From: Ulota crispa
Lineage: Eukaryota > Streptophyta > Bryopsida > Orthotrichales > Orthotrichaceae
Reading direction: 5' to 3'
Assembly (NCBI GenBank): GCA_963920765.1
Contig: OY987246.1
Location: 8,930,501-8,994,500 of the forward strand
DNA length: 64,000 bases
Positions 3,417-34,729 of the stretch are shown in pieces (position 1 is the first letter of the stretch; the number at the start of each line of letters is the position of its first letter). The notes under the pieces are model-generated. The model was given only the letters and a program-made list of their open reading frames with translations, was not told the origin of the DNA and searched no databases. The translations under genes were made by a program, and so were the position numbers.

Positions 3417-3419
3417 CAT

Positions 3420-3452
3420 CACTATAAGAAACCCGCGTTTTTTTGGATGTCC
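3420..3452 (+). repeat. left terminal inverted repeat of CACTA element
   Basis: Starts CACTATAAGAAACCCGCG, followed by a T run and GGATGTCC. It pairs with the inverted right end at 34694-34726 with few mismatches. The terminal CACTA pentamer and adjacent AAGAAA-type sequence are diagnostic of the superfamily. Confidence 0.85.
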
Positions 3453-5396
3453 GAAAATTGCCAATTTTGCATTTAATTTGACGTCAAATGAGTCCGGTCA
3501 CATGTCAAAAATTTTGCGTTAACTTCGATTAGCAAAAAACATCAAAAATTTCAAGAAAACAAAGGCACGTTTTTGGTGAACATCAACATTAACATGGCTC
3601 TAGGGGGGGTAAGAAAAAACTGACCCATGGGGCGAATGGGCAATGCCTGCCCTAGAAAACCTCATCCAGTAACTTTTTTTTTTCATCTAGTGAAAATCTG
3701 ACATTGACTGTGACATGCATGCATTCCAAAATCTTATGTAGCGTGTCAGAGCGGGGGTAAGAGTGACCAATTCCAACATCAACAATAACGTCAATAGGGA
3801 CATCAAACTCAATGTTATCCTACCATTGAAAACATCTACAGCATTACAATCCATGTCTATATTGACGTGCAGTGTCACATGGCCCTATTTTGCTAGTTGT
3901 TCCGCATTACGCAAGTAAGGACATGTTCAAGGTTGGACTTCAGGGTTGTGTGTCCGGTTCAATGTCCTCATTGACGTACCTTTGCTCATCCAAGGCATTA
4001 AAGGTAACATATATGATTACATTTGATTTGCTTGAAATTGAAAAAATTTGCAACAAGTTGTTGACTTAGGGTTACATTGTTGACATTTGCATCGACTTGC
4101 ACGTGTAATCTTGACATTCATTGCTACAACATCAGGGTTCATATGGATGTTAAGTTTGTCCGCTCTCGCATTCTAGGTGATGGCAAGCAAATCCCATGCC
4201 CTACTAAGCATGTACATTCCGGCATGGTACTGTTGAGCAGAATGCTATAATTGGCATGTTCCTTGACATAAGATGTTTCCCATGACAACATTCTAGATGT
4301 AACATAAATCAGCATGAATGTTCTAATTTACAACCACGGAAGTGTGCCATGTTCTAGGGGTACACAAATACATGTCCGTGAGCATGTAAATTCATGCATA
4401 CTATTGTTACAAAAACATGGGTTCATTGACAGTGCATGTACAGATCCTCGTACGTCTTTATATCCTCTGGAGTGACTGAAGCGTTGAATTGGATGTATTT
4501 TTTATTTTAGGGAACATTGATTTGTGTGCGTAGCATGTTTACGTGATGTCATTTGCCATGCACAATGTAGCCCTTGCTTGTTCATCATAATGTCTCTACA
4601 ACATTAAATTGGAGGCTTGGGGTTTAGGCTGGTGATTGTTATTATGCAACAACCACTTTGTTTGATGTCTTTTCTTGTTTTCAAGTTGTTCAAATGAATG
4701 CCAATGGTTTAGGGTGGTGTTCATAAATGCCTACCATTCAGCTCATATTTGCCTACATGAATGTCTTCGATGACACATCAGGAATGTCAACTATTGAACT
4801 CAACAGCTTTATGAACATCCACTTAGTTCTAGTCCTGCCCCCCATGACACCTACTTCGATGCTTCCTCGGACATCTACTGCGTCCACAAAGGTATTTCAT
4901 TAAACATGCTTCTTTCAGTACTAAGGGGGATGGACGTCCCTTAGATGACTGAATTGACATAGTACCAAGTGTTTGATTGACCACATTGCAATGTCTTCAA
5001 AGACATTCTCAACATGCATTACAATCACTTTCATCCTACCATAATCAATAAAGGGTTCTAACCAATAGTGAAAGTCATGCAAGCATCATTACCATGAAAT
5101 AAAGTGTAATCCAATGCACACTTCAAGGTTCCATTTGTACATAAAGTAACTTGGCACTAAACCCCAACTTCCACATGTAAAGCTAAGCTTCCTCTCCCAC
5201 TAGAATAAATCTAACGTTGTGCCGGATGTTGATTGGGATGTGAACACTACCATCTCCGCTGCTAGGACTGACGCACATGCAATGCTGCACACGACGTCCA
5301 AAAGGATATCAACCCGTTAGAGATAATGCTCACATAAACAAATGAATGCAAGCCATGACAACTTCACAGCAAAAACACTCACATCCTCAAACTCAC
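3453..5396. other. left subterminal region of CACTA element, non-coding
   Basis: No gene is recognised. The stretch is rich in short motifs of the type GACAT/ATGTC, GACGTCA and AACATTG in both orientations. Dense short subterminal repeats are the expected transposase-binding region in CACTA elements; that role is inferred, not shown. Similar motifs recur in the right subterminal region. Confidence 0.5.
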
Positions 5397-7408
5397 CTAC
5401 ATCTAAAGCGGCTAAGGACTTCATTTCTTCTTTGTCGCATCCGCCCTTGTTGTCAAAGCCCCCGCCTACACAATCCCATTTCTTGTGTCAAGCCTTGTGT
5501 ATGTAGTTCTTGGTCATACAAAAATTCATGGAAATTGCAGAACTCACTAACCTTTCCATTTGATTTTATGGACCTCAAGTGGTTGGTCACAATTGGTTTG
5601 GGGGCAACCGCTTCCACGGACGACGAAGGCCCTGCTGAATTTGTTGCCTTCTTTGTTGCTACCGTGCTACCCATTGTATATGGGTCCTTGGGTATTGCTT
5701 GCTACTGCAAGAAAATATCACCCCAGCAAAATAGTGGCACACAACATAGATGAGAGCATCTAAATAAGCATGGATTGTTATAATGTATGTCAACCAAAGC
5801 ATTGTCATTGACCTCCGCCTACATATGTACATGTCATACAAGACATTTCAATCAACATAACCACATTTAAAGAAACATGCACAAAATGTTGTTTACCTGC
5901 TCTAGCATGCCTATAGCAATGTCCTTGGTTGCATCCTTTTTTGGGGTTGTGTTGACAGCCAGCGTAACCTTGTTGCTATCCACACCTCCATCCTTTGTCA
6001 CCACCAAGTCCTTCTTGGTGGCTTTGTCTGCCACCCCTCCATCTACTCCCACTCCTCCAACCACCATCGCGTCCCCACTCACAACCGCCGCCTCCTCTCT
6101 ACTAGACTTTGCAATGTCCACCTTCGCCCCTTCCTCCCTCTCCACCTCCTCAACTCCATTGCTGGCCAAGCACTTCTTCTCTCTTCCATGCGCTTGTGCG
6201 GCAGTCAGGGCTGCCACGCTTGCAACCAACTCCTTGAGCGTGCCCTCCAATTGAGATTGAGTAGACATCATAGCCAATGACAGCTCTGCAACCAACCCTC
6301 GCACCTCTGCTATCTCTCTTTGAAGATATGCAACCTCTTTGCTGAAGTTTGCACACCCTTTTCCCTTCTCGCCCTCCAACCGCTTCATCTCCTTATCCAT
6401 CTCCTCAACAATCTTGGTCTCATAGGATTGCTTGCCAAGCTCATTATCCTAAAACATAGAAACCTGTCAATGTAGGGAATAAACTTCAATACAAATGGCC
6501 ACAACGTCACGTACAAGAGGGACATGCTACAGCAAAATATCAAAATAAGCCAACTGCCATTACTTAGAACGTCAAGGATGACAAGACACACACATCATAA
6601 ACTTTGAGGACATCCAACAAAACATGAAAGGACACGCATCTTACCAATCTGTATGTCACAGATGTCCGCAGTGCGTTCATCTTTGCCGTATTGTCCCCCT
6701 TGCCTTCTGATATTGCCCGCATCTGCTGCAACTTTGCCTTGGACTCCGGCGTCGCACGTTTCTCTACTAGAGACTCCCACTACATGTCGGTGACCTTGGG
6801 CGGCTTCAGCAAGTTGTCATCAATCATGTTGTTGAGTCTGAAGCGCTCGGCAATGAGTAATTTGGTCATCCTGGGGCCTAACCACTCCTTGTTGATCTGC
6901 TTCCCCCTATTCCTTCCCCGCAACTCCCACTCTGCAAGGACGTCCATCACCAAGCCAACATGAACTACCCTATGCATACCAACATGTGAACAAGATTGCA
7001 ATGTCAGAATAACAACAACCTAAGAATACCAATAACAAGTTTAAAGTGACATGGAATTACCTCCATACAAGCTCTCAAAGAAATGGTCCTTGAGCACTTT
7101 CGACTGCTGCGCCCAATTGTAATAGCAATCAAGGTCCTTTGAGAGGAGCCTAATATGTGTACGCAATGTCTTCACCATCTTCCCAATTGGGTTGAGATTG
7201 ACGTCAGTGAGTATCTTCTTCTTCTCCTTGATGTCTTGCAGACGTCAAAGCCGTTTGAAAGGCTGCTTCTCAGCCTTCGGCCTAATTGGGAGAGGAGTGT
7301 GGTCAAAGTCGGACTCCTCTTTGTCCATGTTCTCCTCCTCATCACTATCCCTCTCTTCGTCCTCTTCTGATGAGGAATCAAAAGGACTAAACAATGTGTA
7401 CAACACAT
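5397..7408 (-). pseudogene. Transposase_24-like (Ptta/En/Spm) CACTA accessory gene, decayed
   Basis: A multi-exon gene can be traced on the minus strand: an acidic exon (about 7408 down to 7060, with a Ser/Glu/Asp run), an exon from about 6964 to 6647, one from about 6450 to 5898, one from 5701 to 5552, and a small one ending at 5397, joined by plausible GT-AG sites. The second exon contains RKWR-like basic residues followed by a W-ES-LVEKR-x-TPE-x-KAK-LQQ-MR pattern, the layout of the plant Transposase_24 family. The 5898-6450 exon is Lys/Glu-rich and predicted coiled coil, then Ala/Val-rich. Two in-frame stops (about 7245-7247 and 6780-6782) interrupt it. It lies near the left end of the CACTA element and faces outward, opposite in direction to the TNP2 gene. 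Family assignment is moderate; gene decay is clear. Confidence 0.6.
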
Positions 7409-7659: not shown

Positions 7660-10600
7660 ATCCCTCAGCCTTACCCATGCTATCCCCTTTCCAATTCAAT
7701 GTGGAATCTTGACAAAACTGGCCTACCCAATCCACCAACATGATTGGAAAATAACATAAACTAGTGAATCACCAAACTAGAAGCTAATAAGGAAAAAGCC
7801 CTACCCCTATGACCCTCTACCTTCTCCACAAAATCTCCTTGTCCATTCCTATTTAGAACAATCACAAGTAAGGCCCATCAAAATCACCAAGCGTGATTGA
7901 CAATTAGCCTTCCAACTCTAATTAACACCAAACATGAAAAACAAAAGAAAGGCCCCCCAAACCCCCTTGCATTCTCCACAAGATCCCTGTCAATCTTATT
8001 TTGAACTGAATTCAATCCATGACTAAGCAACACACCAAGCATGAATGGGAAAATACCAAACACTTAGAAGCACCAACCATAAAAAAAAAACCATGAAAAT
8101 TTCCGCCCCTAACCTAGTGGCCCCAGCCTTCACAATGACATCCCCTGCCCATTCCAATTTTGAAATATAGACAAGTCTACCCATCCACATCATCATACAC
8201 AAATAAAAATTCACCATACACTCTAATTAGAACAAAAACAAAACAAAAAATGAAAAATTCCGAACCCTTTGACCAGGCCATCCAAATCATCAAACACAAA
8301 TAAAAATTCAGCATTCACTCTAGTTAGACCAAACATGAAACAAGAAATGAAAAATGTCCATACCTTTGACCCCTTCCATTCCCCAGACATACCTGGTCCA
8401 TTTCATTTTGAAATTTAGACAAGCCTACCCATCCAAATTCATCAAAAACAAATACAATTTAGCAAACAACTCTAATTAGTCCAAACATGAAACAAAACAT
8501 GAAAAAAAACAATACCTCTAACCCTTGCCATCCCCACAACATACCCAATCCATCTCATTTCAAAATAAAGACACGTCTGGAAATCTAAATCACCAAACAC
8601 AAATAAAAAGTCACCATACAACTCTGACTAGACCAAAAATGAATGAAAAAATGAAAAATATCAATACTTGTGACCCTTTCCATCCCCAGACATACCCGGT
8701 CCATCTAATTTCAAATTACAGACAAGTCCGCCCATCCAAAATCACCAAACACAAATAAAAACTCACCATACAACTCTGCTTACACCAGAAATGAAATGAA
8801 AAATGAAAAATATCGATACCTTTGACCCTTCCCTTCCCCAGACATACTCGGTCCATCTAATTTCAAAATACAAACAAGTCTGGCAATCCAAATCATCAAA
8901 CACAAATAAAAATTCACCATACAAACTCTGATTAGACCAAAAATGAACCAAAAAATAAAAACAAAGAAACCCCTCTGACCCTTCCATTCCGCGGATATAC
9001 CAAGTCACTCTCATTTCAAAATTTAGACAAGTCTGTCCATCCAAATTATTAAAAACAAATAAAAATTCACCATAGACTCTGAATAGACCAAACATGAAAC
9101 AAAAAACTTAAAAACCCAAACCCTTGACTTTGCCATCCCCATAGCATATAGCTCAATCAATTTTTGAATCATAGACAAGTTTGGCCATCCAAATTCACCA
9201 AACACAAATAAAAATTTGCCATGTAGACTCTAATTAGTCCAACCATGAAACAAAAAATGAGAAATACCAATGCCTCTTACCCCTTCCCTTTCCCATACAT
9301 ATCCGATCCATCTCTATTGAAAGTATAGACAAGTGTGACTACCAAAATCACCAAACACAAATAAAAATCCACAATAGAACTCTAATTAGACCAAAAATGG
9401 AAAAAATAGAAAAAACCCAAATCCTTGACTCCTTCCCTTCCCCAGACATACCCGGTCCATCTCTTTTCAAATTACAGACAAGTCTGCCCATCCAAAATCA
9501 CCAAACACAAATAAAAACTCACCATACAACTCTGCTTACACCAGAAATGAAATGAAAAATGAAAAATATCAATACCTTTGACCCTTCCCTTCCCCAGACA
9601 TACTTGGTCCATCTAATTTCAAAATACAAACAAGTCTGGCAATCCAAATCATCAAACACAAATAAAAATTCACCATACAAACTCTGATTAGACCAAAAAT
9701 GAACCAAAAAATAAAAATAAAGAAATCCCTTTGACCCTTCTATTCCGCAAACATACTAGGTCACCCTCATTTCAAAATTTAGACAAGTCTGCCCATCCGA
9801 ATCCATCAAATACAAATAGAAATTGGCATACAACTTTGAATAGAACAAAAACAAAACAAAAAATGAAAAATATTGATACTTCTGACCCCTTCGATTCCCC
9901 AAACATATCGAGTCCATCTCATTTCAAATTATAGACAAGTCTAGCCCATCAATTCACCAAATACAAATAAAAATTCTCAAAACGCGTAGAAAAATTGACC
10001 ATGCACTCATATTAAACCAAATAGGAAACAAAACATGAAAAATGTTGATACCTCTCACCCTTGCAATCCCCACAACATACCTAGTCCATCTAATTTCAAA
10101 ATATAGACAAGTTTGCCCATCCAAATTCACCAAACACAAATAAAAACTCACCATACAATTGTGAGTACACCAAAATTGAAACTAGAAATGGAAAAAAACA
10201 AACCCCCTAGCCCTCTCATCCCCACAACAGGAAAGGTCAATCACATTTCCAAATATATACAAGTCTGCCCATCCAAATTCTTCAAACTCAAATAAAAATT
10301 CACCAAACAACTCTGATTAGTCCAAACATGAAACAAAAGATGAAAAAAATTGATTCCTCTAACCCCTTCCCTTCTCCAAACATACCAGGTCAATCTCATT
10401 TTGAAATGTAGACAAGTCTTGCCCATTCAAATCATCATACACGAATAAAAATATATCATACACTTAGACTAGACCAAACACAAAACAAAAAATGAATAAT
10501 ATTGATACCTTTGACTCCTGCCATTCCCATGACAAATCTAATCCATCTCATTTAAGAATATAGACAAGTCTAGCCCATCAAATTCACCAAACACATATAT

Positions 10601-13600
10601 AAAAATTCACCATACAACTTTGAACAAACCAAACATGAAAAAAAGGAAAAAAAAGGAACCCTTGACCCTGCCATCTCCACAACATACCAGCTCAATCAAA
10701 TTTCAAAACATAGACAAGTCTAGCCATCCAATTCACCAAATACAAATAAAAATTCACCATACAAACTCTAATTAGTCCAAAGACCAAACATGAAACAAAA
10801 GATAAAAAATATCAATACTTTTGACCCCTGCATTTCAAACCTTAAAGGTTAATCTCATTTCAAAATTTAGACAGGTCTGGCCCACCCAAATCATCCAACA
10901 CAACTAGAAATTCACCATACACTCTAACTTGACAAAACATGAAAAAAAAAACAAAAAAAACCCCGAACCCTTGACCCTGCCATTTCCACAACATACCTAG
11001 TCCATCTCATTTCAAAATACGGACAAGTTTGGCCATCCACTTCACCAAACATGAATATAAATTCACCAAACAATCTGAGATTAGTCCAAACATGAAACAA
11101 AAAGATAAAAAATATCAATGCCTTTGACCCCTTTCCTTTCTCCATACATACCTTGTCCATCTTTGTTCAAATTATAGACAATTTTGGCCACCCAAATCAC
11201 CAAACACGAATAAAAATCCACAATAGAACTTTGATTAGACCAAAAATGGAAAAAAAAAAAAAAAACCCTGAACCCTTGACCTCTTCCCTTCCCCACAGCA
11301 TACTAGGTCCATCTCTTTTCAAAATATAGACAAGTTTGGACCATCCAAAATCAACAAACACAAATAAGAATTCTCCATACACACTGCTTAGACCAAAAAT
11401 GAAACAAAAAATGAAAAACAATGAACCCTCTAATCCTGCCATCCCTAGAACATACCTGGTCCATCTCATTTCAAAATATAGACAACTCTGACAATCTAAA
11501 TCACCAAACACAAGTAAAAATTCACCATACATTGTGATTAGACCAAACGTGAAACAAAAAATGAAAAAAACCTAAACCCCTAACGCTGCCATCCCCATGA
11601 CAGCAAATGTCAATCACATTTGCAAATGTAGACAAGTTTGCCCATCCAGATTCTCCAAATACAAATAAAACTTTACCATACAATTTTGATTAGACTAGAA
11701 ATGAAACAAGAAATGAAATAAACCAATCACTTCACCCCTTCCCTTCCCCATAGCATACCATGGTCATCTCTTTTCAAAATATAGACAAAGTTTGGACCAT
11801 CCAAAATCAACAAACACAAATAAAAATACACCATACATTGTGATTACACCAAAAATGAAACAAAAGAGGAAAACAATTGAACCCTCTGACCAGCCCATCC
11901 AAATCATCAAATACAAATAAAATTCACCATTCACTCTGATTAGACCAACCATGAAACAAGAAATGAAAAATGTTGATACCCTTGACCCCTTCCATTCCCA
12001 GACATACCTAATCCATCTCATTTTGAAATTTAGACAAGTCTGGCCTTCCAAATTCATCATACACAAATACAATTCAGCAAACGACTCTAATTAGTCCAAA
12101 CATGAAATGAAACATGAAAAAAATCAATACCTCTGACCCCTACCATCCCCACAACATATCCAGTCCATGTCATCTCAAAATAAAGACACGTCTAGCAATC
12201 CAAATCACCAAACACAAATAAAAATTCACCATACAACTCTGACTAGACCAAAAATGAAAGAAAAAATGAAAAATATTGATACTTGTGACCCTTCCCTTCC
12301 CTAGACATACTCGGTCATAGTCCTTTCAAAATTTAGACAAGCCTACCCATCCAAATTCATCATACACAAATAAAAATTCACCATACAACTCTGATTTGAC
12401 CAAAAATGAATCAAAAAATGAAGAACATCAATACCTCTGACCCTTCCCTTCCGCAGACATACCCAGTCCATCAAATTTTGAAATATAGACAAGTCTGGCA
12501 ATCCAACTCATCAAACACAAATGCAAACTCACCATACACTTAAATTAGACCTAAAATGAACCAAAAAATAAAAATAAAGAAATCCCTTTGACCCTTCTAT
12601 TCCACAAACATACCAGGTCACTCTCATTTTGAAATTTAGACAAGTCTGGCCATCCAAATTCATCAGACACAAATAAAAATTCACCAAACAACTTTGATTA
12701 GTCCAAACATGAAACAAAACACAAAAAATGTCGATACCTCTAACCCTTGCAATCCCCACAACATACCTAGTCCATCTCATTTCAAAAGATAGACAAGTCT
12801 GCCCATCCAAATTCACCAAACACAAATAAAAACTCACCATACACTTTGATTACAACAAGAATGAAACAAAAAATGAAAAAATCCAAATCCTTGATCCCTT
12901 CCCTTCCCCACAACAAACCTGGTCCATCTCTTTTCAAATTATAAACAAGTCTACCCATCCAAATTCACCAAACACAAATAAAAACTCACCATACAACTCT
13001 CCTTACACCAAACAAGAAACAAAAAACAAAAAAAAAACAGACCCTTCACCCCTTCCCTTCTCCAAGACATACCTAGTCCATCTCATTTCAAAATTCTGAC
13101 AAGTGTGGCCTTTCCAATGCACCAAACACAAATAAAAATTCACCATACAAGCTCTGATTAGTCTAAACATGAAATAGAAGATGAAAAATATCATTACCAT
13201 TGGCCCCAGCTTTCCAAACCTTAAAGGTAAATCTCATTCCAAAATTTAGACAAGTCTGGCCTACCCAAATTATCAAACATGATTAGAAATTCACCATACA
13301 CTCTGATTTGACCAAACATGAAACAAAAAACTAAAAAAACCCCAAACCCTTGACCTTGCCATCCCCACAACATACCAAGTCAATCAAATTTCAAAATTCT
13401 GACAGTCTCGCCATTTAATTCACCTAACACAAATAGAAATTCACCATGTAGTCTCAGATTATACCAAACATGAAACAAAAGATAAAAAATATCGATGCCT
13501 CTTACCCCTTTCCTTTCTTCATACATACCCAATCCATCTTTGTTCAAATTTTAGACAAGTTTGGCCAATTAAATCACCAAACACAAATAAAAATCCACCA

Positions 13601-14250
13601 TACGCTCTAATTAGACCAATCACAAAACAAAAAATGAAAAATATTGATATCCATGCCCCTTGCATTCCTAACCTTCAAGGTTACTCTCATTTTAAAATTT
13701 AGACAAGTCTAGCCTTTCCAAATCATCAAACACAAATATAAATTCACCATACAGACTTTGATTAGTCCAAATATGAAACAGAAGATAAAAATATCAAAAC
13801 CTTTGACCCTTGCAATCCCCACGACATATTAGGTCACTCTCATTTCAAAATATAGACAAGTCTGGCCCATCAAATTCACCAAATACGTATAAACATTCAC
13901 CATACACTTAGATTAGACCAATCACAAAATAAAAAAGGAAAAATATTGATACCTCTGACCCCTACAATCCCCACAACATTCGAGGTCACTCTCATTTCAA
14001 AATTTAGACAAGTCTAGCCCATCCAAATTATCAAACATGAATAAGAATTTGCCATACAGTTTGATTAGAACAAAAATGAAACAAAGAAAGAAAAAAACAA
14101 ACCCTCTGATCCTTCCCTCCCTTAGACATACCTAGTCCATCTCATTTTGAAATATAGACAAGTTTGGCAATCCAAATCACCAAATACGAATTAAAATTCA
14201 CCATACACTCTGATTAGCCTAAACATGAAACAAAAAATGACAATATGGCC
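7660..14250. repeat. ~150-bp tandem repeat array, about 43 degenerate copies
   Basis: A unit of about 150-154 bp recurs head to tail. Landmarks in each copy, in plus orientation, are a CCCTTCC(C/A)TTCCCC-like stretch, CATACC, TCCATCTCATTTC, AGACAAGTCTG, CCATCCAAATCACC, AAACACAAATAAAAATTCAC, CATACAACTCTGATTAGACC and AAAATGAAAC. The AGACAAGTCT landmark falls near 8570, 8720, 8872 and 9026, giving the period. Copies diverge by point changes and small indels, with longer blocks nearly duplicated (8760-8960 against 9525-9720), which suggests unequal exchange or segmental duplication within the array. The plus strand is strikingly poor in G. Minus-strand reading frames of 60-111 residues recur with the same motif (NFYLCL, then DGQTC, then MRWTRYV) because the period is close to a multiple of three. 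It sits inside the CACTA element. Confidence 0.9.
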
Positions 14251-16736
14251 CTAGAATTCTTTGCCTAAACCTAGGAGATCATGTGTCAATCTAATTTCAA
14301 GATTCTTTGCACTGCTGGCTAGACCATAAACCCTAACACAATTGTGAAAACTCCATACTCAAAATTCAAAATTCATGACTTGTACAAATTTGGAACCTAT
14401 CCACTTGGACCCAAGGTCACCGCCCTTGTTGCAGTCTCTTCAAAGCTCCCTCGGCGGGGTCACAGCCCTTTATGATTGGATACCACCTGCAATAATGGAG
14501 TAATTAAATGGGGGGTATTTAGATTCTTTAAGGTAAATTTTTTGTCCCTTTCTTTAGATAAAAAGCTGCTTTAGAGTATTTTAGGGTACCCTATGCTTAT
14601 TTCTAAATGGTTATATGACCTAATTTTTTAGACCCTATTTTTTTTACAAACACAAAAGTATCATAAAAAAAATATGTGTATACAATGGATTTATACAAGA
14701 CTTTGGCCCTTACAAGCATTTGAATTACAAAAAAACACCTTTGAAAGAGAAAATGCAACAAGGAACATGAAGCTAAAGCAAACAACTAATCAGTCCCACA
14801 TCATACACAATCTTATGCACACAACCAATTATAGTCTGTCAGTCCTCCACCACACATAAGCTTTAACAAACAACCAATAAGAGTACCTCATCAAATGTAA
14901 GCTAGATTCCCAAAAATAATAACATATATCTTGTGTTTCAAAATACAACGTTGCATTTAACACATGGACATTACAAAAAATTGGCTGAAAGAATTGCTCC
15001 CATATCTATCATTATGCAGCAATAGCACAAAAACTAGGAGATGAGTGAGGTTCATGAAACTAGCATGAACTACAACCGGCCGCAACATCTCCCACAACAA
15101 AAGACAAGTAAAGTGAAAAAAAAACAGTCTTTAGCTTTGACATGCACAATTTGCAAGTGTGAACCACAAGAATCTAGAGAACTATATGCAACCTAGGCTT
15201 GGTATGTGGAAAGATTGCAGCTTATTGTCTTCAAGTGCAGCCTACAGTCATCTCAAGTTTGCAAGCTGAGGTCTCAGAACGCACATGTGTGCCAACGATT
15301 GTCATGGAGAGGCTACTACATGCGCTAGTTCCAACCAAGAAGGGTCAAATACTCCTCAAACTGCAACAACACAAACTTGTCCTTTGCGATCCATTGGAGG
15401 TGCGGCATCATTAAGAAGTCTTCTTGCACCAACATCATTGCTGCCCACTCCATTGAGCCATCCACAAAGACCCAGTAGGACCTCCATGTGTCACGGACAT
15501 ACTCGACAATAGCCAACGGAACTCTAGTTGTGCGCTCTAGATCATTCTAGTCCTCTCAGGGATTTAGCTCTTGGGTTTGCAATAGAAGCTGTGGTAGCAC
15601 ACAATCTTGCAAAGGGTACTCTAAACTTTTGTCCATTAGTACAGACAACAAGAACAAAAACAAAAATAACACTAGAAACATGTAGTAGAAGAAAAATCTA
15701 GAACTGCAATGTGAGCAGCAACACTCTAAAGACCAACATGAGTAGTGGTATTGAAAGCAAGACCGGAGACATGCAAAAGAAGGTGACAATAGAAAGCAAA
15801 GTTTTTTGGGGGAGAGGAAAGTGACCTCAGCAACCACAATTAAAGACTCGGTAAACAAGAGCACGACAACAAACAACGGGTTAGAAGACAACAACAACAA
15901 AACACTATAGCGATCGAGTTAGGAGGGTCAAAAACCAAAAGCTGCAAACTACACCACGTCAAATACAGCAAAAGCCAATGAATTATAGAGGTCAACTTGT
16001 AGGCTACAGGTTACCTAGCTCACAAAGAAGACCTTGACAATGCAGCCACAATCCAAAGAAGTAGAAGAAAATCGCTAAGGAAGAGGACTACAGACTAAGA
16101 GAAGTTCGAAAATGCAAAAAACAAGTGGCAATGCAATCCAAGTGTGGCGGTGACTTGAATTCAAACTATAGCCTATCCCTCCCTTTTCCCCCTCACCTTT
16201 CCCACAGGTCCATGTAATTACATCTTGTCCCCAAGTAGGAACTGATGTAATCTTTAGATTTCCTTCATCAGTATACCATTTGCACACTTTAAAAAAATCC
16301 TAGTTTACGTCACTTTCACATTAGCACAAAGAACTTGAAGTGGACAAAAAATCTGATATTGCCAAGACTAAACGAGGTTCCTTTTTGGAACACAAGGGCA
16401 ACACAATGACTTACAATTATGGTCAGCATATGCACTCAATGAGAGGATAGAAATTTCAAAGATGTTAGTAACTAGCATGTCAATGCAGAATTATAATCAT
16501 GCACATTTTTTGACAAATTCATCTAAAGAATTTCCATCAATGTGATCTAGTTGGAATACATTCTTTTTTGTATCAAATGACATTGTGACCATGCAGATGA
16601 TGCTATTGATGTCTACCCATATGGAATTGGAGTGGTCATATTTGAATGTTAGAAATCTTGGAATTTTCCTAAATTAATTTAGGAATAGCATAAAACCAGA
16701 ACCCCCAGTACCTTGTTTTTTACCTTTATGTACATC
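14251..16736. other. interior CACTA DNA without a supported gene
   Basis: Mixed AT-rich sequence. A minus-strand frame at 15325-15516 (about 63 residues, with a YVRDTWRSYWVFVDGSMEW segment) looks more protein-like than its surroundings and could be an exon or remnant of a captured gene, but I cannot assign it. Frames at 15556-15900 and 16075-16287 are low-complexity or hydrophobic without family features. Nothing else is recognised. Confidence 0.4.
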
Positions 16737-20979: not shown

Positions 20980-21917
20980 GAAAATAGCGTAAGAATTTAA
21001 CTCATAGCAAGTCCTTCAAACCACACTTACAAAGCAACCTTACATTATCCTAACCCATTCCTAAAAACTCAAATTATTCTCAACCACATGTATACTCACA
21101 AAACGGCAAACAACGAGCTTTGAAGCACTAAATTCTAAAATGCGGAAGAAGATATGAAAGGAAGAAATCTAGGCAAAGGACAATGGATAGCAAGTAAGCA
21201 AGTAAGCTTGAGCGGTGAATCTGAACTCTTATTGTTGAGAACTACAAAAAGAAGTGAACAATAACGCCGACGTCCACCACTGTCGTTGGCGGAAGAAAAA
21301 AAATCTAATCCTGAACTCAAACCCCACTAAGCTCAATCTCTTGCACTTGCAAGTTTGGCAATGAAGAAAATTTTGTAAGGAAGAAGAGAAGCTTCAATTG
21401 CACAGCACCCTTGCTGCCACTTTCAATGCGCTTAGATAATCCGGAGAGAGAAATATTGCAAACAAGAAAAAAACAATATCAAATCTTAGAATCCTAAATG
21501 CCAACAAGAGCAATGGGAAGCTTAACATAACAACGTGATAACCATAGTACTTTGGACAAATATCCAAGCTTAGAAAAACAGCCAGTCCCCAAGTGGGTCT
21601 AAGCGCATAATCTTTACTTAAGATACATTCCGAGTAACCCATAGTATTTTTAACAAACATCTGAGATCAAAGGATAACTACTTAGAGACACATAGAATGG
21701 AATCTTGTAAAACCTAACTGACCATAGTTTGCAACCAAACTCCTCCAAGTCTTCTAAAACAAGTAAGCAAAAATACTAGATAAGACACAAGAGAAACAAA
21801 AGATATTGCCATAGAGACCATCCCTTGGATTGGAGACAAAAGATGGAAAACATGTGAGTATGTTCATCTCCTTGAAAATGGGCCACTTATGCATGGTGGA
21901 CATTCTAATATCAAGTA
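20980..21917. other. region upstream of the decayed minus-strand gene
   Basis: This would hold the promoter and leader of the minus-strand gene at 16.7-21.0 kb. A small frame at 21135-21320 on the minus strand has no recognisable features. No clear TATA element or repeat boundary was identified. Confidence 0.35.
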
Positions 21918-22497
21918 TTCCCTCTGTCCCTCTAAAAATGTCCAAATTAGACATATTTTTTGTACTACTTAAAAGTTCCCTTTTATTGATTTCAAATGCT
22001 CAAAAAGCATGTCATGTTCAATGATCTCATGGGGGCAAGTTAAGCAATTAGGGAGCATTCATCTCCTAGCAAGCTTAGCCTTTGCTCATATGCGGTACCA
22101 TTGTTGCTACTAACTTTAATTCATCAATAATGAGGAGTTAGCAACATGCACAAGTATGGTACTTTTTGTATAGAATTTGGGTGCCCAAGCAGCAACACCA
22201 AAGCTAGAGATTTTGCATACATTTGGTAGATGGTATATTGATTCTTGAATGCATGTGTCACTAGCACAAAGACTAAAATAATGAGAAGCTATCAATATTC
22301 ACAAACTATGTACAAATATGGCACTTTTTGCATGACATTAGGGTGCTTAAATGGTGACATAAAAACTAGAGATTTTGCATACATTTGGTAGATGCTATAT
22401 TGATTTTAGAATGCATAAGTCACTAGCACAAAGATTAAAAACACAATTAATCTTTTGCAATGAAGCTTTTTGAACTTATATAGAGGGACAGAGAGAG
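21918..22497. mobile_element. Stowaway-like MITE (TA target duplication)
   Basis: The left end reads TTCCCTCTGTCCCTCTA after TA (21916-21917); the right end, reverse-complemented, reads CTCTCTCTGTCCCTCTATA and is followed by TA (22498-22499). The CTCCCTC(C/T)GTCCC-type terminus with a TA duplication is the signature of plant Stowaway elements (Tc1/mariner superfamily). The 580-bp interior holds near-duplicate segments (for example the ATTTTGCATACATTTGGTAG phrase near 22210 and 22372). No coding sequence. It is nested in the CACTA element. Confidence 0.75.
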
Positions 22498-25400
22498 TAT
22501 TATTGAAGATTTCCAAAAAACTTTCACATTTTGAATATGATGATGTATCTTTCTCCTCCAACCTTATAAATTACAATAGCTATGTGACAAGATCAGCTTA
22601 AGAGTTTTGAATAAGCACTTGGTACCTGACTCTGGCAACTGCGAGGGCCACACCGTGGACTCTTTGGTGAACCACAAGCATTCTGCATGACAACCACTAG
22701 AACAATTATGGAACAACAATAATCCAAATGTGCAGAGTTATTTAATTGAAAATTTGGGATAGTCGGTTTGGCTTCAGTATAATTTGCTCAACATTTGTAC
22801 ATGCCAAACAATCCTGCCAAAACATAAGCATCCTCTAATTTTCTCATGGCATAAACCAATATACTTTTATAAAGACATTCATAACATTGAGCAATGATGG
22901 CCATAGTGGAACAAACAACCAGACGCAACATCAAGAGCTTCATAAGTTCCAATAAAACTGTTAGTTGTACCCGGACATGCTCATTGAAGGATCACCAGCT
23001 CAATTTGTACTTAAACTTTGCAAATACTTTGAAGCAAAATTTACAACTTGTACTGTATTTGAAAAGATGCTAGGTTATTTTTTAATCCACATCCAAGCCT
23101 ACTTTGCATGCACATGAGACTTGCAGTCACTATAAAGATCTATAATGTTTGAATCATAAATTGGCTATAAATATATATAGTGCAACCTAATTTTTCTATT
23201 TGCTCATTAAACTTGGAAGCACTTATAATTGTCGGCGTTGCTTGGACTAAGAGACTGGATGAAACTCAAGATACCTTCTTGCATAGAACAATGATGTGAG
23301 ACAACAAATAAAATATTCTTTAAAGCAATGATTGACAGTTAATCGTCACTTGAGCATTGGAATATATACAACTTTAATGACATTCTTGCAAATTGCTATG
23401 CTGATATGTGATAAAGGAAAACAAGGAGTGAAAGTATCAAATGCCATCATCCCATGTAGGAGTTTCAAAATGAAGGACTGTTCTTTGTGCATCGAGTAAA
23501 TAGTAAAGATGATCATAATAATTCTATTTACGTTGAGAAAGTATTGCTGTGCAAATATGATTCAGGTTCTTGGTAATGAAGTCAAGCAATGTGACGAAGA
23601 GCCTTAGGACATTATCCTTAGCTCAGTCATGTCAATGATGTACTATCCTAGAAACTTGCATCTGTGGACATGCCCATTGCTTTCAAGATGCCCACAATTG
23701 TCTTTCATCTATACACTCTTCCGTGTGATTAGATACATTACAACAACAAGAACATCAATTCCTACTAATAAGATGAGAGCGCGTGAAATTGGTTGACATC
23801 AAGTATTTGGCAAAGGAAGGCAACAAGAACAACAATTAGAAAAGATCTGTCTAAAAGTTGACCATGAGATTCCTTATACTGCACTGTACACAGAGAAGCT
23901 GTGAATGAGGACCCACCCCATTTGATCAGTTTACAAGGGATTTGCTTGTGGAGATCATAGCAAATTGCTACCATCAAGGCATCCAAAAAAGTCAAGTGTA
24001 CACTACCCCTTTGTAAAAATGACGAGTATTGTTAAATCAAGGAATTGGATCAAAGTGATTCACTCTCTCACTTGGCATTGCTCAAGAAAAATGAACGCTC
24101 TAATTTACGTAATTAACTACCCGCCACACTCTCCATAGAAATCAAAAGAAGACAAGCCATCTTCCAGCAAGAACTTTGCATTCAATGGCTTCATGCACCA
24201 AAAGCCAAGCAATTCCAATGCACTCTAACTATAACACGAGCAAACCCTAAGAAATACTACAAAGAGGGCTGAGCGAGTACCTAGCCCATGGGAGAAAGAA
24301 TACCAAGTTGTAAGCAAGTTGATCAACCCACCCCCCTTGCAATCCGTGGTCTCTCGTCCAGTAGGTGCGCCTTTCTCACGCTTGGGCACGGCGCGTTTCT
24401 CCACAGCAGGGGCAAGGTAAGGTAGTCCTAGAGTTTTTTGGACCGGATCAGTCACAAGATTGGTCAAAGAACAGATGCTAAAGATGTGACAACCAAAAAC
24501 TTCAACACAGCAATGGCAAAATTATGTTGCTGCGGCAGTGCGGGCGTCCTAGCTTATGCTCTGAATGATGAGTGGCTGTCCGTGCGGCACCCAAGGAAGA
24601 GCAATGCAAGAAAGCCTTTGTTGTAAGGTGGAGGAGCAGCGAGACGAGAAAAAAGAAGAAGGGAGAAGAGCGATGCAAGAGAGCTACTCGCGATGGGGAA
24701 GAGTTTACAAACAAACTCTAACCTTACTTTGCCACTTGATGAACAAACCCTACATTGCAGCTTACAACATTCAATTCACGCTGGCAAGACCTTGAAATTT
24801 AGTGTTCCCATGCTCTTGCCTAGCTGTCCAAGTAATTCTGAACAAATTTCCCTCCATTCTTTTCAAAACTTGGACAGAGCGTACTTAATTTGTCATTCAA
24901 ACTTGTCAGACAATAATAATCAAACTCATCCTACTAAACAGTTTCTAAAGGATCCTATGTTTCCTACCCTATTTTTTTCTAAAATGAAGGCATTATTCAC
25001 CACCTTATCTTACATATAATGAAGTAATAGACATATTTTTGATGCTATGGTAGATTTAACAAAAATATAAAATTTACCTCTAATGAATAAAATTGACCCT
25101 ATTTTTTATCTCACATAGTTTACTAAAAATTGGAGATTGACCTCCTCAAGGAAGCCCCCAATCTACGTCAATTGTTGAGCATCCTTTGACGTCTAAGGAA
25201 ACATAGAGCCATGTGCAGCTAAACACCCTCGCGTCTTGTCAAACATCTAACTTGGAAATTCTGAAAGAGCGGGAGAAGTGAAAGTAGTACCTGCCATCAC
25301 TAGGCTCCATGGATACTTCTTGGGCAACCTCTTGGTCATTTGCCCTACCGTCAGACCTGTGCTTCATCGATTGAACCACCTCCCCTTTGAGCGGCTTTGC

Positions 25401-28213: not shown

Positions 28214-28606
28214 TTCCTAAAGAAACTACTAGCACTATCTTCAAGTTAGTTAATTGTTCAAGTCACATGTTCAATTCATGTGCAATCGTGCATGTTTAAT
28301 CAACGTCAAATAAGAGTCAATTTCAAGGTTTTGAATGCAAAACGATGTCAACATTGACTACAGGAATGATGCAATAGACATGCCATTAGCGTCCTAAATC
28401 ACATCAATTTGTACATATAGGTACATTCACACTGCGTTGTTTGGGACGTGGTTGCGACAAATTTAGGACATAGTACATGAGTAGGATTTCCATGTGCAGT
28501 ATGTATAAATGAGGGAAGTTGCTAAAGCCATGGTTTTCATTATATATACTACAAATGTCATTGGACAAGATGTCGCTTTGCTCTAAATCCTAAACTACAA
28601 GCCTTA
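28214..28606. other. spacer upstream of the TNP2 remnant
   Basis: No coding exon was recognised. It would contain the former promoter and 5' leader of the plus-strand transposase; no convincing TATA box or start context was identified. Confidence 0.35.
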
Positions 28607-31600
28607 TTGCAATCCAGGATGCCTGATCACAGTGTAAGAATCCAAATTGCAGGCAACGGACGGGCGCTGCGGCATATCCCACTTGGCGACCTAATTTTAC
28701 AAACAGAGTTGCAAGTTGCCACAAAGAAGAACTACTCATCATATCCTTGTCTGTGTAGGGATTGCCATGGGGGTTTACAAAAATGTGTTGAGGTGATAAA
28801 GAGACACCATGCTCTTGTGGGGAGGGACCCATTTTTGACCCATTCCATAATAGGCGGTGATCCACCAAATGGATTTCCATAGCATGGAATCTAGGTTGAA
28901 GATATGGCTTATGATGACGATAACGTCATTGTGGGCGACATTGATGCTCCTGAAGACGTTGATGTCAACAAAGCCCATATTGAACCTCATGTGCCAAGCG
29001 TCAAAGAAAGAGCCGACATTGATGATGACAACATTATTCTAGACAAGCATCATGACGTTCAAAGGCAAGTGATGGAGGCCTTCAACCGTGTTGATGAATT
29101 GCACCAAAAGGCCCATGCAAACCCGGACGCCGCGCTTGAGTTTGAAGACCAAGACAATGCTACATTGAACGAGTTGCAGGAGTTGTATGACGTGGCATCA
29201 ACACCTCTGTACACGGGATCGAAGACAAGCGTGGTGTCAACCACCATTGTTCTCATGAACATATGTGTTGTCTTTGGTGTCAGCAATAGATTATCAAATG
29301 GGTTGCTCCAATATTTGGCAAAGGACTTGTTGCCCCTTGACAACAAGTTGCCAAGGACACATTATGAGGCCGAGAAAACTATCCAAAGACTAGGTTTAGA
29401 GTATATTAATATTCACACTTGCCTTGACGGGTGCATGTTGTTTGAAGATGAGGAATTGACATTGAATGAATGTCTAAAGTGTTCAAAATTGTATTGGATG
29501 GATGGTACGGATGCTATTCTTGCAAAAGTCATTCAATATTTTCCTCTCATTCCACGTCTGAAGCAAATGTGGAGGTTGCCGGATATTGCAAGCATGCTGA
29601 TGGATCACACCAAACACGTCAGCAGTGATAGTGTGATGCGTTCAGTAGTGGACAGCCCCGCCTAGAAACACATCAACTCTGACGTTGCTTCTGGCAACTT
29701 TGGTGTTGAATAACAAAACATGCAACTGGCGTTGGCCTTGGATGGCATCAATCCGTTCAAGCTCAGCAACACAAATTAGTTGACTTGGCTGATGTTGATA
29801 TTGATTTATAACTTGGAGCCCTAGTTTGTGACGAAGAAATTTTTCATTTTGCTTAGCATCCTCATATCAAGCAAGCAATGTCTAATTGCAAAGAACATTG
29901 ATGTTTTCATAAGTCCACTAATACGGGAGTTGCAAGTTCTTTGGGAGGGCGTCCTATTGCTAGATTATTCACGCCCCCAAGGTTCTTGACGTTTTGTGAT
30001 GCCGGATTGTTGATGTGGACAATCTCAAACTTTCTAGCGTACGGCCTCATATCTGGTCTATGCTATAAGGGATATTGTGGTTGTCCATCATGTGGCTCTG
30101 ATACGAACTCAAGGATGGCAAAGATCGGGGACGTGCTACTTGATGGGTCCGTAAGGGGCAACAAAATTGTGTATGGCGGGGCTTGTAGGTATCTGCATCA
30201 CAGACATCCGTACTAGCGTAACCAAAGATTCGATGGGCAAGCTGACCATTGAAGAAGGCCAAAAATAATGTTAGGATTGGACGTCATTGGAGACGCAGGG
30301 TGGCGTCAAATGTACTTGGATATGGGTGGTTGGGAGGATGGGAAAGACAATCTTGTGCACTATTCCGGCATGAAGCGGTTGAGTGCATTCTATGAACTTT
30401 TGTATTGGCAAGTGCGTGAATAAGAAAAGCTAAACTTTGTAATTGTCATACCAACAATAGGAAAAGAAACAAGTGTCTGCCAAGATTGACGTAGCATGTT
30501 CAAATGTAGTGAACATTGGAAAAACATCAAAGTAAATGTTGCTACAACTAGAAGTGCAAAGAATTTGTCTATGCATCTGCATGTCCATGTGATTGTACAT
30601 GTCAAAATGGATGATAAAATGTTAAATGAAATGTTAAAGTGTACATATTTATGTTTAAAAGTACATTGTGAAGTCATGGTAGACATTTCTTGGGTTAATT
30701 AGAGCAACAACAATATCGGGTGTTGTTTTCATGGGGGTACAACATCACGTTCAAAAAATCATGGTAGCATATATCTCTAAATCTGAATGGACGGTCCAAT
30801 ATTGTTGGTCTAGTCTTGAGGAGCATCCATTTCATGTTGATAGCATTTGTTGGTCTGACACACCCTAGACGTCATGCACTGCAAAAAGAACTTGTGCAAG
30901 AACATTTTGAAGACATTGCTAGGTATGAATGATAGCCCAAGGAGTTGCCAGGACTTGCAATACTTGAATATCCACAATGAGTTATGGTTGCAACGTCAAA
31001 GAGATCAACTGCACATGCCACGAGCGTTGTACATCTTGAAACCAGATGAGTGAAAGGAGTTTGTGCAAATCATTTTAAACATATGCACACCCCTCAAACT
31101 ATGTAGGTTGTATTCAAAAGCGCCTAAAAGATGGGAAACTTCAGTACATGAAGACACATGACTACCATGTCCTCATGCAACAGGTAAGTATGTATGAAAC
31201 CTTCACATTTTGCTTTCATGTCCAAAAATGCATATATCACAACATTTGTCTGTGTCAATAGACACCTTGATTGATATAACCAAGACAATCAAAATTTTAA
31301 TATTGATGTTAACCAAGTATCATATTGGGTTGCAATGGACATGATTGCAATTACAGCACGTTACATTTGAAGTGTTAATTAACACAAACATCACATTGTA
31401 GACTTCTTGATGCAGTCATGGATGTCTGGAAGTGCATCACAATTGACATGCAACTGTGCTTTGAAAATCTGTCCATTGCAGGTACTCTCTATGGCAATTA
31501 GAATCCTTCTAGATGAAGATGTACAACTAGCAATTATAAAGATGTGTCGGGTGTTTCAAAGGTTGTGCAAGAAAGAGGTGCAAGAGGACGGCAAGGAGAA

Positions 31601-33316
31601 ACTCATGGAGAACGTGATTATTGCATCTTGCATTTTAGAAAAAGAGTTCCACCAACATCTTTGAATGTCATGACACACCTACCCGTGCATCTAGTGGAGC
31701 AGTTGTTTATCTGCAGCCCCGTCTATTACAGATGGATGTACTCCATTGAGCGCTACTTGAAGACATTAAAGGACTATGTTAGAGCTTACACTCATCCAGA
31801 GGGGAGCATAGCGAAAGGCTATCGAATGAAAGAGGCATTGGGGTTTTGCACAAAGTATATGACACAACATAGGGCAACGACCCATTGAGTATGGGACACA
31901 GACAAAGACGCTACTATGAACGACGAGATTCTAAACTCCAACGAGACTAGCAAGCAAAAGATGTCAGACATAGTGCGTGGTTATGCGCACTCATTTGTTC
32001 TTGACAATGCAGCATGTCTAGAACGGTTTTGGGGGTAAGTGGCTAGACGCTATAGTAAATGTTAACTGCGATCAGAGAATACAACAACCATGATTATGTG
32101 TATAACTTGGTAATGCTGTTTGGAACAAGTGGCAATGTTCTTCTGTGCCTACCAAAACGTCAGCATTGACCTGTATGTTTACATCTCAAAATGCTTGCAT
32201 GTTACAAAAAATGTATTAGATTATGTTAGCTCATACATAGCAACGTCCCTCATAAAGAGTATAGTAGAGAGCGTCACGTTGGTCATAAACAGTAACGTCA
32301 GTGTCATATATTGCATGTTTTCTACAATGCAGGTAGTATCCAAGAGGACACTCAAGGTAGTAGATCTGCACTTCATCTAACATTTGAGTAGACATGGGTG
32401 AAGATCATTTACACTACATCCTGACGTCAGTGCAGTCACAAATAATGTATAGTGATTTGGAACTTGTTGCAGGGATTATAAGGCTGCAAAAGCATGCAGA
32501 TGGAGAGAGCGAGAGGCTTACCAGGTTGAATTTCATCGCCATTGCCTTCCTGCACGGCAAAGATACCTCGACAATTTGGGTGAGCTACCTTCATTTGCGG
32601 ATTGGTTGAGATTGCGGGTGGGAAACGCGCAAAGAAATGGGAAACAGCTTGAGGTGGACGTCCTCTAGTACGAGTTCCCGCCCAAGAGATATGCAACTAC
32701 ACATTGACATATGCATGCGTTCGGGATGCATTTACGCATTTGCAGCGCCGAGGATGGTCTTGTTACTTGAGACTCATGTGTAGTAGTGTCTTTCACCAAA
32801 CACCTTCAATGGGGGATTTTCAACGGAAGACCCGTTGAAAGGACCATAGAGTACATGGGGTACATAGAGGAGATCTTGGAGTTGGACTACCGCAACCATT
32901 GCACCACAATTTTGGTATGCGACTGGGTGAGAGGCACGCACAATGCTCGATATCCTACCGTTGAGCATGACAAGTATGGCTTTAGCACAGCCAATTTCAA
33001 CCGCATGGACGGTGCGGTGAACGCTGACTTGTTTGCATTTCTATTGCATTGTCAGCAATTATTCTTGTCTGATGATGCGCAAAGAAACAAATGGAAGGTT
33101 GTTTGTAGAACAAACGTGCGAGGAAGACGTTTAGCACCGCATGAAGAGCAACAAGACCCAGCCATCATCAATGTTGGTAATGATGCTGACTTTGAAGGCC
33201 TAGCACCCGTTGCAATGGAAACAAAACCTATAAGAAGACCGGACACTAGGGGTGGTACATACGTTGTACCCACAACAAAAGGACCCAATGGAGTAGCCAT
33301 AGCACAGGAGGAGTGA
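28607..33316 (+). pseudogene. TNP2-type (Transposase_21) CACTA transposase with DUF4218/DUF4216 parts, decayed
   Basis: The domain order of plant TNP2 proteins is visible in pieces. An N-terminal transposase-associated zinc segment (CLCRDC, then IKRHH) lies at 28607-28882. The core at 28904-29665 includes LLPLDNKLPRTHYEAEK, then GLEYINIHTCLDGCMLF, a CLKCSKL metal-binding pair, and FPLIPRLKQMW. Continuation through 29.7-30.4 kb includes ALDGINPF, LMWTISNFLAYG, GYCGCPSCG and YSGMKRLSAFYEL. A DUF4218-like part at about 31480-31890 has the HLPVHLVEQ / YYRWMYSIERYLK / PEGSIAKGY / CTKY order. A DUF4216-like part at 32786-33316 has GYIEEILELDYR, then GFSTANFNR. Stops near 28880-28900, 29666, 29719, 29810 and 30214, with frame changes, show it cannot make a full protein. 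In a working element this protein would cut at the CACTA termini. Confidence 0.85.
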
Positions 33317-34693
33317 TACATGCCGTGGCTATTGACTATAGTACTAGGACATTGTCTAAAGCACGTGATGTATGACATTCCCAATGTACTAATAGACGTT
33401 CAAGCCCACATCAATTGCAGAAAATGAGGTATTGTGTAGCATTTGCATAATCTGTGGGATGTTCTAGTGAGCACGCGCTTGTTGGCCCTATATGGAAACT
33501 TGGAATTTTCTACATCAAAGATTGTGTTTGACAAAATGTTCATGTGGATGTTGTTAATAGCATGGTGCATGTCCACGGAAGTGATGCCTGTATGATTTAC
33601 ATGAAAGGGTCCTTTGCAAATTAGTTGTCTTCAGAAGTTGGAACTGCATTCAGTAGGATGTCAATGTGAACATCACCTCTATTGTGGAGTGGCATGGTGA
33701 CAGTGATGTCCATCTAAATGTCCCTCATGACGTCATGATTTGTAGGGTTTGTGGCTCTTAAGGTGGGCAATATTTTCACCAATCCCAGCATAGTAACTTC
33801 TAGAAAGTAAACTAATGTTAAACTGAGTCAAATTTGCCAACATGGCAAGCATGTTTAGATTGATGTCACGACGGACATAATTCTAGACGCATGAAATGCA
33901 GCTAATCATTATTTTTTTAAATGGTAGCCTTTTAACCTCATAATGCATAGTAACTCATGTAAATTTACTTTCAATGAAATTAACTCACCTCGTCATAGTG
34001 TCAGTCACGTTAGTTTGGACATCCAATCGTATGTTTTAGTTAACATGCGGAATTCCCAAAATTAAAATTATTTGATGGTCTGCGTTTTCACTGGCACGTG
34101 CTCTGTGTCTTTTGAAAAGTTATATGTGGTAAATCCGGCCTCCATTGCCAACCTGGCAATTATGTTTAGTTTAACAACAAAGAAAACGTCTTTGTGGACA
34201 TCTAAATTTTTGGGCCTTTTTTTTTACACTAATCAACGATTTTACCCTTTATGTAAATAGTTAACTCTTGGAAGTTACCTTTGCTGAAATTGACCCTCCA
34301 TTGTCAGAGTTACAATGATGTTCATCACAATATCAACCCTGATGTGGGAACAGACATTTTCATTTTTCTGGGCTTTAATTTTTACAATGGGCAACATTTT
34401 TACTGAAATCTAGAGGGATAAACTGTGGAGAGTTACCCATGGTGAAAAAAAAGTGCCCTTGTCAGACTGGTGAGTACGTTGATGTTTATGTCATCATGGA
34501 CATTTGTCAAAACATCCATGTATTGGGTGGACATTGTTGTGGTTGTTCTTGACATTATGGTTATTATTCTTGACAACCACACATTCTGTAGATGTTATGA
34601 AATTTTGACATCAAAATTTTTTGGATTTTGAAAGCCAGTTGGTGTCAAAATTATGTTAGAATAAACGCGTCTAACAAGAGGATGTTTTTGCAG
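33317..34693. other. right subterminal region of CACTA element, non-coding
   Basis: No gene. Like the left side, it is dense in short direct and inverted motifs (GACGTCA, TGTCCA, GACATC and TGTTGACA-like), consistent with a transposase-binding subterminal zone. The phrase structure AAATGGTAGCC / TTGCCAACATGGCAA recurs loosely around 33840 and 34130, suggesting internal duplication. Confidence 0.45.
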
Positions 34694-34726
34694 GGACGTC
34701 AAAAAAAACGCGGATTTTTTATAGTG
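34694..34726 (-). repeat. right terminal inverted repeat of CACTA element
   Basis: Read on the minus strand it starts CACTATAAAAAATCCGCG, then a T run and GACGTCCC, matching the left end. The three bases beyond it (34727-34729, CAT) equal those at 3417-3419. Confidence 0.85.
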
Positions 34727-34729
34727 CAT

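What the first reader, a model, noticed from the sequence alone, without database searches (positions are those of the whole stretch)
3420..34726. A 31.3-kb CACTA transposon bounded by matched termini and a CAT duplication
Both ends carry CACTATAA(G/A)(A)AA(C/T)CCGCG termini in inverted orientation and the same 3-bp flank, and both expected gene types lie between them. Plant CACTA elements are usually well under 20 kb, so this one is very large, with about 21 kb of non-transposase interior. It may act as a carrier of tandem repeats and other genes.
Basis: partly seen in the sequence, partly recalled or inferred. Interest (0 to 1): 0.75.

Follow-up and report, generated by a model that had tools for sequence, protein, structure and literature searches.

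The report
Old CACTA transposon with nested transposon
The 31-kb stretch is a real but decayed plant CACTA jumping gene of about 20.6 kb; a third of its length is a second, different jumping gene that landed inside it, whose own gene matches no family in the protein library searched.

Summary
Both are collinear with the ends of two 16.3/16.8-kb copies on contig C11, so they belong to one CACTA/EnSpm element. Transposase_21 (in a C11 copy only), DUF4218 and DUF4216 place it in that superfamily.

The size reading needs correcting. Bases 14450-25150 (10,701 bp) are a separate transposon: both C11 copies run straight through that site; the insert is flanked by an 8-bp duplication (6/8 identical now); its ends are the halves of a repeated ~800-bp element with exact 8-bp duplications in 6 of 7 copies read. 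The CACTA proper is 20.6 kb, with an enlarged 152-bp tandem array that these siblings also carry.

The long gene in the insert is repetitive (57 places), with a strong third-codon-position bias between copies but no Pfam match above threshold and no PDB match. The CACTA ORFs tested show no such bias and are broken: a neutral relic. No empty site was found in this genome. The host looks like a bryophyte. Ordinary CACTA; the nested element is the interesting part.

The parts
3417..3419 (.). left 3-bp target-site duplication CAT of the CACTA element
3420..3452 (+). left terminal inverted repeat (CACTATAAGAAACCCGCG...) of the CACTA element
3420..34726 (+). CACTA/EnSpm element including the nested insert (31,307 bp; 20,598 bp without the insert and one copy of its 8-bp duplication)
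5867..6448 (-). uncharacterised second ORF of the CACTA element (193 aa); region 90% and 84% identical in the two siblings (34 gap columns in the second), without third-position bias
8278..14240 (+). tandem array, unit about 152 bp, about 39 copies in two TRF blocks (23.6 + 15.5); the two siblings carry 11.5 and 14.7 copies at the same place
14442..14449 (.). left 8-bp target duplication of the nested element, AAAGCTCC
14450..25150 (-). nested transposon, 10,701 bp, with ends CTCGGCGGGGTCACAG... / ...GACCTCCTCAAG
14450..14893 (+). left end of the nested element, shared with the left half of a repeated ~800-bp element
16499..20958 (-). decayed gene of the nested element (frameshifts and stops); multi-copy family; no Pfam match above threshold (window ORFs give sub-threshold AT_hook E 0.045 and DEAD_assoc E 0.17), no PDB match; inferred transposase
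21840..24056 (.). stretch of the nested element with one good match among the places scored (C2:857470-858641, 85-88%), interrupted by two small insertions; possibly captured sequence
21916..22499 (.). Stowaway-like MITE (ends TATTCCCTCTGTCCC / TACTCTCTCTGTCCC; the name is recalled) inside the nested element; the C2 homologue is uninterrupted there
24809..25150 (+). right end of the nested element, shared with the right half of the ~800-bp element and, at 75% identity over 250 columns, with a second copy of the gene (L052)
25151..25158 (.). right 8-bp target duplication of the nested element, GAAGCCCC
28526..33316 (+). decayed TNPD-type transposase region: 28895-29665 corresponds to the sibling's Transpos_assoc/Transposase_21 ORFs by alignment, DUF4218 at 31517-31888 (E 1.4e-23), DUF4216 at 32771-33316 (E 2.2e-4, below its cut-off)
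34694..34726 (-). right terminal inverted repeat of the CACTA element
34727..34729 (.). right 3-bp target-site duplication CAT

Best explanation
A CACTA/EnSpm DNA transposon (about 20.6 kb, cut-and-paste, 3-bp target duplication) inserted at this site. It carries a TNPD-type transposase region, a second uncharacterised ORF and a 152-bp tandem array that varies in length between copies. A different DNA transposon, which makes 8-bp target duplications and has CTYGGGG-like ends, is now nested at window position 14450 (shown). This second element has a long gene of its own and is most likely the autonomous partner of the repeated ~800-bp elements that share both of its ends (inferred). Two small elements interrupt the nested one. 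The coding regions here are broken, so the locus is a nested relic that no longer moves by itself. Shown: both pairs of ends, both duplications, the uninterrupted sibling sites, array length variation, broken frames. Inferred: that the nested gene encodes the transposase of its element, and the order of events.
For: Ends and CAT duplication. Identical 3-bp flanks in 9 of 14 end pairs that I picked from the list (9 of the 12 over 1 kb; 0 of 2 pairs of 174 bp). Collinearity with two C11 copies up to both termini, interrupted only by the array length difference and the insert. Transposase_21 E 9e-16 and DUF4218 E 5.6e-27 in a C11 copy; DUF4218 and DUF4216 in the window. Insert: junctions and 8-bp duplication; its ends are the halves of an ~800-bp element, 8-bp duplication exact in 6 of 7 copies read and 6/8 in the seventh, the next best pairings reaching 3-6 of 8. 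The gene and the right end occur together in a second place, L052. The gene family lies at 57 places (my merging of 80 pieces; 86 of 86 candidates scored). Differences between copies concentrate at codon position 3 in the nested gene (57/40/128 and 24/23/66 against L052) but not in the CACTA ORFs (36/23/25 in the largest; similar in the other four tested).
Against: The two siblings read in full (C11:2780018 and C11:4530830) themselves lack matching 3-bp flanks. The nested element's duplication has 2 mismatches of 8, though a sibling shows the unsplit AAAGCCCC. No empty site of the CACTA insertion was found in this genome. The nested gene has no recognisable transposase domain. Only two siblings of this type were read in full; other sizes rest on end positions. 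The search with the whole insert scored 39 of 3368 candidates and missed even the window's own copy, so its silence about other copies means nothing; the statement that no sibling carries the insert rests and (40 candidates scored each, own copy first).
Confidence: 0.9

Rival explanations
1. The whole 31.3 kb is one mobile unit that captured a host gene and tandem repeats and moved as such.
For: CACTA elements with arrays and CACTA gene capture are known (PMC8978399 and PMC4290129, passages seen). One stretch (21840-24056) has one good match elsewhere among those scored.
Against: The insert has its own ends and 8-bp duplication and is missing from both siblings read. Its gene is a repeat family, and none of the 57 places of that gene other than the window lies inside another same-type CACTA span.
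Confidence: 0.05
2. The two ends belong to two different, truncated CACTA copies and the interval is a chance mosaic.
For: The terminus motif is common in the genome (91 + 80 matches with up to 2 mismatches).
Against: Terminus-to-terminus collinearity with two independent copies and matching CAT flanks.
Confidence: 0.03
3. Contests only the inferred step: the nested gene is not the transposase but a passenger of a non-autonomous 8-bp-duplication element (for example a divergent hAT) mobilised in trans.
For: No Pfam match above threshold and no PDB match; the profile comparison with P-element transposase failed. The element also holds a stretch with one good match elsewhere, so it may pick up foreign DNA.
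Against: The gene occurs at 57 places, keeps a strong third-position bias between copies, and is linked to the same right end in a second copy.
Confidence: 0.25

Closest known systems
CACTA / EnSpm superfamily (plant elements with Transposase_21, DUF4218, DUF4216)
   Same: CACTA termini, 3-bp target duplication, transposase domain set, internal tandem array
   Different: No Transposase_24 / TNPA hit in the ORFs scanned; second ORF on the opposite strand without family; enlarged by a nested transposon
Chenopodium quinoa CACTA-like 'Jozin' element with satellite array (PMC8978399, passages seen)
   Same: 16,523-bp CACTA element with an internal array of 32.5 copies of a 171-bp unit; comparable to the 16.3/16.8-kb siblings with 11.5/14.7 copies of 152 bp
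   Different: Array near the 3' end there, on the 5' side here; no nested element mentioned in the passages I saw; unit sequences were not compared
Chondrus crispus En/Spm families of 16-20 kb (cited in PMC6431247, passage seen)
   Same: Enlarged EnSpm elements
   Different: Extra ORFs belong to the element there; here the extra long gene belongs to a nested insertion
DNA transposon superfamilies with 8-bp target duplications (hAT, P; recalled)
   Same: 8-bp duplication and short inverted ends of the nested element
   Different: No hAT or P family model matches the nested gene; hhalign with the P-element core gives probability 0.3%

Membership tests
CACTA/EnSpm | CACTA-type terminal inverted repeats | tested here: met
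CACTA/EnSpm | 3-bp target-site duplication | tested here: met
   CAT both sides here; identical 3-bp flanks in 9 of 14 pairs picked in the genome
CACTA/EnSpm | Transposase domains Transposase_21, DUF4218, DUF4216 | tested here: met
   DUF4218 E 1.4e-23 and DUF4216 E 2.2e-4 (below its cut-off) in the window; Transposase_21 E 9e-16 only in the collinear C11 copy, not in the window ORFs scanned
CACTA/EnSpm | TNPA-like second gene (Transposase_24) | tested here: inconclusive
   no hit in 9 window ORFs of the CACTA parts and 10 ORFs of a C11 copy; shorter ORFs were not scanned; many CACTA families lack it (recalled)
CACTA/EnSpm | Empty site without the element | tested here: inconclusive
   joined flanks match only this locus; no relative is held
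P-element superfamily (for the nested element) | 8-bp target duplication | tested here: met
P-element superfamily (for the nested element) | Homologous transposase core | tested here: not met
   hhalign probability 0.3% against the P-element core (a shallow test, one sequence against seven close ones); the recalled letters match 6p5a over residues 1-348; no Pfam hit
hAT superfamily (for the nested element) | hAT transposase domains | tested here: not met
   no Pfam match at E up to 10 in 10 ORFs of two copies and 7 read-through proteins (HMMER filters drop most weak matches)

The most novel reading that the evidence does not exclude
The nested 10.7-kb element is a member of an undescribed DNA-transposon superfamily, in a bryophyte. 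It makes 8-bp target duplications, has CTYGGGG-like ends, encodes a protein of well over 1000 aa (my stitching of frames in L052, with a frameshift) with Cys/His-rich and AT-hook-like parts (by eye and sub-threshold) but no known transposase domain, and drives a large set of ~800-bp derivatives (dozens scored, hundreds of unscored candidates).
Probability: 0.2. Interest if true: 0.6.

Novelty: new member of a known kind. Interest (0 to 1): 0.35.

Why it matters
It shows how an apparently giant CACTA element is built: a 20.6-kb element with an enlarged array plus a nested foreign transposon, so the interval between matched ends should not be read as the length of the mobile unit. The nested element links a repeated ~800-bp family to a long gene that the protein library used here does not recognise. 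If that gene is a transposase, it adds an unclassified DNA-transposon lineage in what looks like a bryophyte.

Tried and rejected
P-element/THAP9 relationship of the nested gene: suggested to me by eye from short motifs, tested with hhalign and not supported (probability 0.3%). Structure prediction of a read-through fragment of the window's nested gene gave mean pLDDT 33 and was not used. Relatives of the nested protein in viral contigs: 342 stretches matched a peptide pattern, none confirmed. Empty site of the CACTA insertion within the genome: none found, flanks match only themselves. RNA families and tRNAs in the window: none. The PF02992 whole-genome search did not complete; Transposase_21 was tested by scanning ORFs of a C11 copy instead. 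The genome search with the whole insert was swamped by a repeat and missed the window itself; I used it only for the places it did list. Literature searches for a plant DNA-transposon superfamily of this kind listed nothing that seemed to fit; I saw listings and abstract beginnings only, so this does not show that none is in print. PMC13120521 was seen in passages and not used; PMC8195511 was not opened (one search failed).
Full report
Setting. The window lies at C5:8930501-8994500 of an unnamed 274.8-Mb assembly of 157 contigs. A plastid-like contig (C157) carries an open rbcL with third-position GC of 11% in a stretch of 30% GC. The best solved relative by sequence is 9chz (the output names no organism). 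Together with a 312-aa ORF downstream that I take for a short accD (recalled), this looks like a bryophyte; that step rests on recalled features and the species was not identified.

Observation. The inverted ends at 3420-3452 and 34694-34726 are 33 nt long and 88% complementary, ranked first of 89 inverted pairs; two longer pairs are only 70-71% complementary. The terminus pattern has two matches in the window, against a mean of 0.06 in shuffles. Both ends are flanked by CAT. In the whole genome a blended 18-mer has no exact match; the refined pattern with up to 2 mismatches gives 91 forward and 80 reverse matches against 54 and 31 for the reversed control, so single matches mean little. I therefore tested pairing by other means.

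The ends belong together. Two other copies, C11:2780018-2796267 and C11:4530830-4547585, align to the window from terminus to terminus: window 3418/3420 onwards on the left and 25152-34726 (88-89% identical) on the right. From the genome-wide searches with both ends, further copies of the same kind have end-to-end distances of about 16-17 kb (for instance C11:1345622-1362479 and C7:6501795-6518416). Others are larger (C11:2428509-2464769, 36 kb; C3:9490680-9537624, 46.9 kb with a 28.5-kb break in its 5' part) or smaller (C7:11571963-11580263, 8.3 kb); these were not read in full. Of 14 convergent end pairs that I picked, 9 have identical 3-bp flanks, among them pairs spanning 20.5, 29.9, 31.3 and 46.9 kb. 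The five failures are C2:12199770, both fully read C11 siblings, and two 174-bp pairs.

Superfamily. In the window, DUF4218 (E 1.4e-23) and DUF4216 (E 2.2e-4, below its cut-off) are found on the + strand. In the collinear C11 copy Transposase_21 (E 9e-16; a second piece E 1.3e-5, below cut-off) and DUF4218 (E 5.6e-27) are found, with a sub-threshold Transpos_assoc (E 0.056). That is the CACTA/EnSpm set. No TNPA-type (Transposase_24) hit was seen in 9 window ORFs of the CACTA parts and 10 ORFs of the C11 copy. Differences between the window copy and its siblings show no third-position excess in five ORFs tested against two copies (36/23/25 and 38/18/32 in the largest), so these copies have decayed neutrally since they split.

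What the extra length is. Relative to the two siblings the window copy differs in two ways. First, the 152-bp tandem array at 8278-14240 has about 39 units, against 11.5 and 14.7. Second, the block 14450-25150 (10,701 bp) is missing from both, whose sequence runs straight through the site. The block is flanked by AAAGCTCC and GAAGCCCC, 6 of 8 identical, where the sibling printed has AAAGCCCC. Without it and one copy of the duplication the CACTA element is 20,598 bp.

The block is a transposon. Its first ~440 bp and last ~345 bp match, in separate genome searches, the left and right halves of an ~800-bp repeat (40 candidates scored of 452 and of 355, so the copy number is a lower bound). I read 7 such copies, 798-803 bp long: 6 of 7 have exact 8-bp duplications, the seventh 6 of 8, with the next best pairings at 3-6 of 8; the script looked only for elements that begin CT and end AG. 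A second copy of the block's gene (L052) also carries the right end, at 75% identity.

Its gene. A homologue piece from L052 matches 80 pieces at 57 places (my merging; all 86 candidates scored), the window at 18651-19284 among them; none of the other places lies inside the same-type CACTA spans. The minus-strand frames at 16499-20958 align to L052 and L053. Between copies, differences concentrate at the third codon position (57/40/128 and 24/23/66 against L052), so the gene was under selection for its protein while the family spread. The window copy is broken by frameshifts and stops, and so are the other copies aligned. No Pfam family matches 10 ORFs of two copies or 7 read-through proteins at E up to 10; the window ORFs give only sub-threshold AT_hook (E 0.045) and DEAD_assoc (E 0.17). 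No PDB sequence matches the profile; nothing related was confirmed in viral contigs. By eye I thought of P-element transposase; the profile comparison does not support it. A structure prediction from the single sequence failed (pLDDT 33). I infer, but have not shown, that it is the element's transposase.

Does any other CACTA copy carry the insert? The two siblings read do not. The search with the whole insert is no evidence: it scored 39 of 3368 candidates and missed the window itself. Searches with its two outer stretches put the window first and listed no other place matching either stretch in full (40 candidates each), and the gene search found none inside sibling spans.

Further layers. 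A Stowaway-like MITE (21916-22499) and a ~480-bp insertion (about 23519-23997, with a relative at C9:3499119) interrupt a stretch whose homologue at C2:857470-858641 is uninterrupted. That stretch has one good match among those scored and could be captured sequence.

Comparison. CACTA elements with large satellite arrays are in print: a 16,523-bp element of Chenopodium quinoa with 32.5 copies of a 171-bp unit (PMC8978399, passages). Enlarged EnSpm families of 16-20 kb are cited for a red alga (PMC6431247, passage), and CACTA gene capture for wheat (PMC4290129, passages). The element here is a member of that known kind. The nested element is the part without a name.

Noticed in passing
contig G000:C11 (6.3 Mb): 10 of 19 copies (pieces merged by me) with at least 82% identity to the window transposase region lie on this contig, which is 2.3% of the assembly (40 of 102 candidates scored). 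It may be a sex, accessory or heterochromatic chromosome; small sex chromosomes are reported for two Hypnales and two Sphagnum mosses (PMC10619864, passages).
   Followed up: partly
L037/L038, L043, L044/L045, L046, L035/L036, L039/L040, L031-L034, L047-L049: Six CACTA elements of 8-11.5 kb carry two mirrored (inverted) arrays of a ~122-bp unit, a 29.9-kb one likewise, and a 20.5-kb one two mirrored arrays of a ~150-bp unit (8 of the 11 elements examined), while the window copy and its two siblings have one array only.
   Followed up: partly
L047-L049 (C2:7699330-7719828): This 20.5-kb CACTA element holds long ORFs (1221 and 873 aa); the parts scanned match reverse transcriptase and DUF4100: probably a nested retroelement.
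   Followed up: partly
window 36395-38700 (-): Ferric reductase and NAD-binding domains of an NADPH-oxidase-like gene just right of the element.
   Followed up: no
window 56354-56788 (+): Weak O-fucosyltransferase match, E 2.1e-5, below the family cut-off.
   Followed up: no
C9:6076194/6095555, C10:608136/853870, C11:4758082/4838280: Three pairs of copies of the nested gene in opposite orientation have identical scores within each pair, as expected of recent duplications or recent transposition; the stretches were not read.
   Followed up: no
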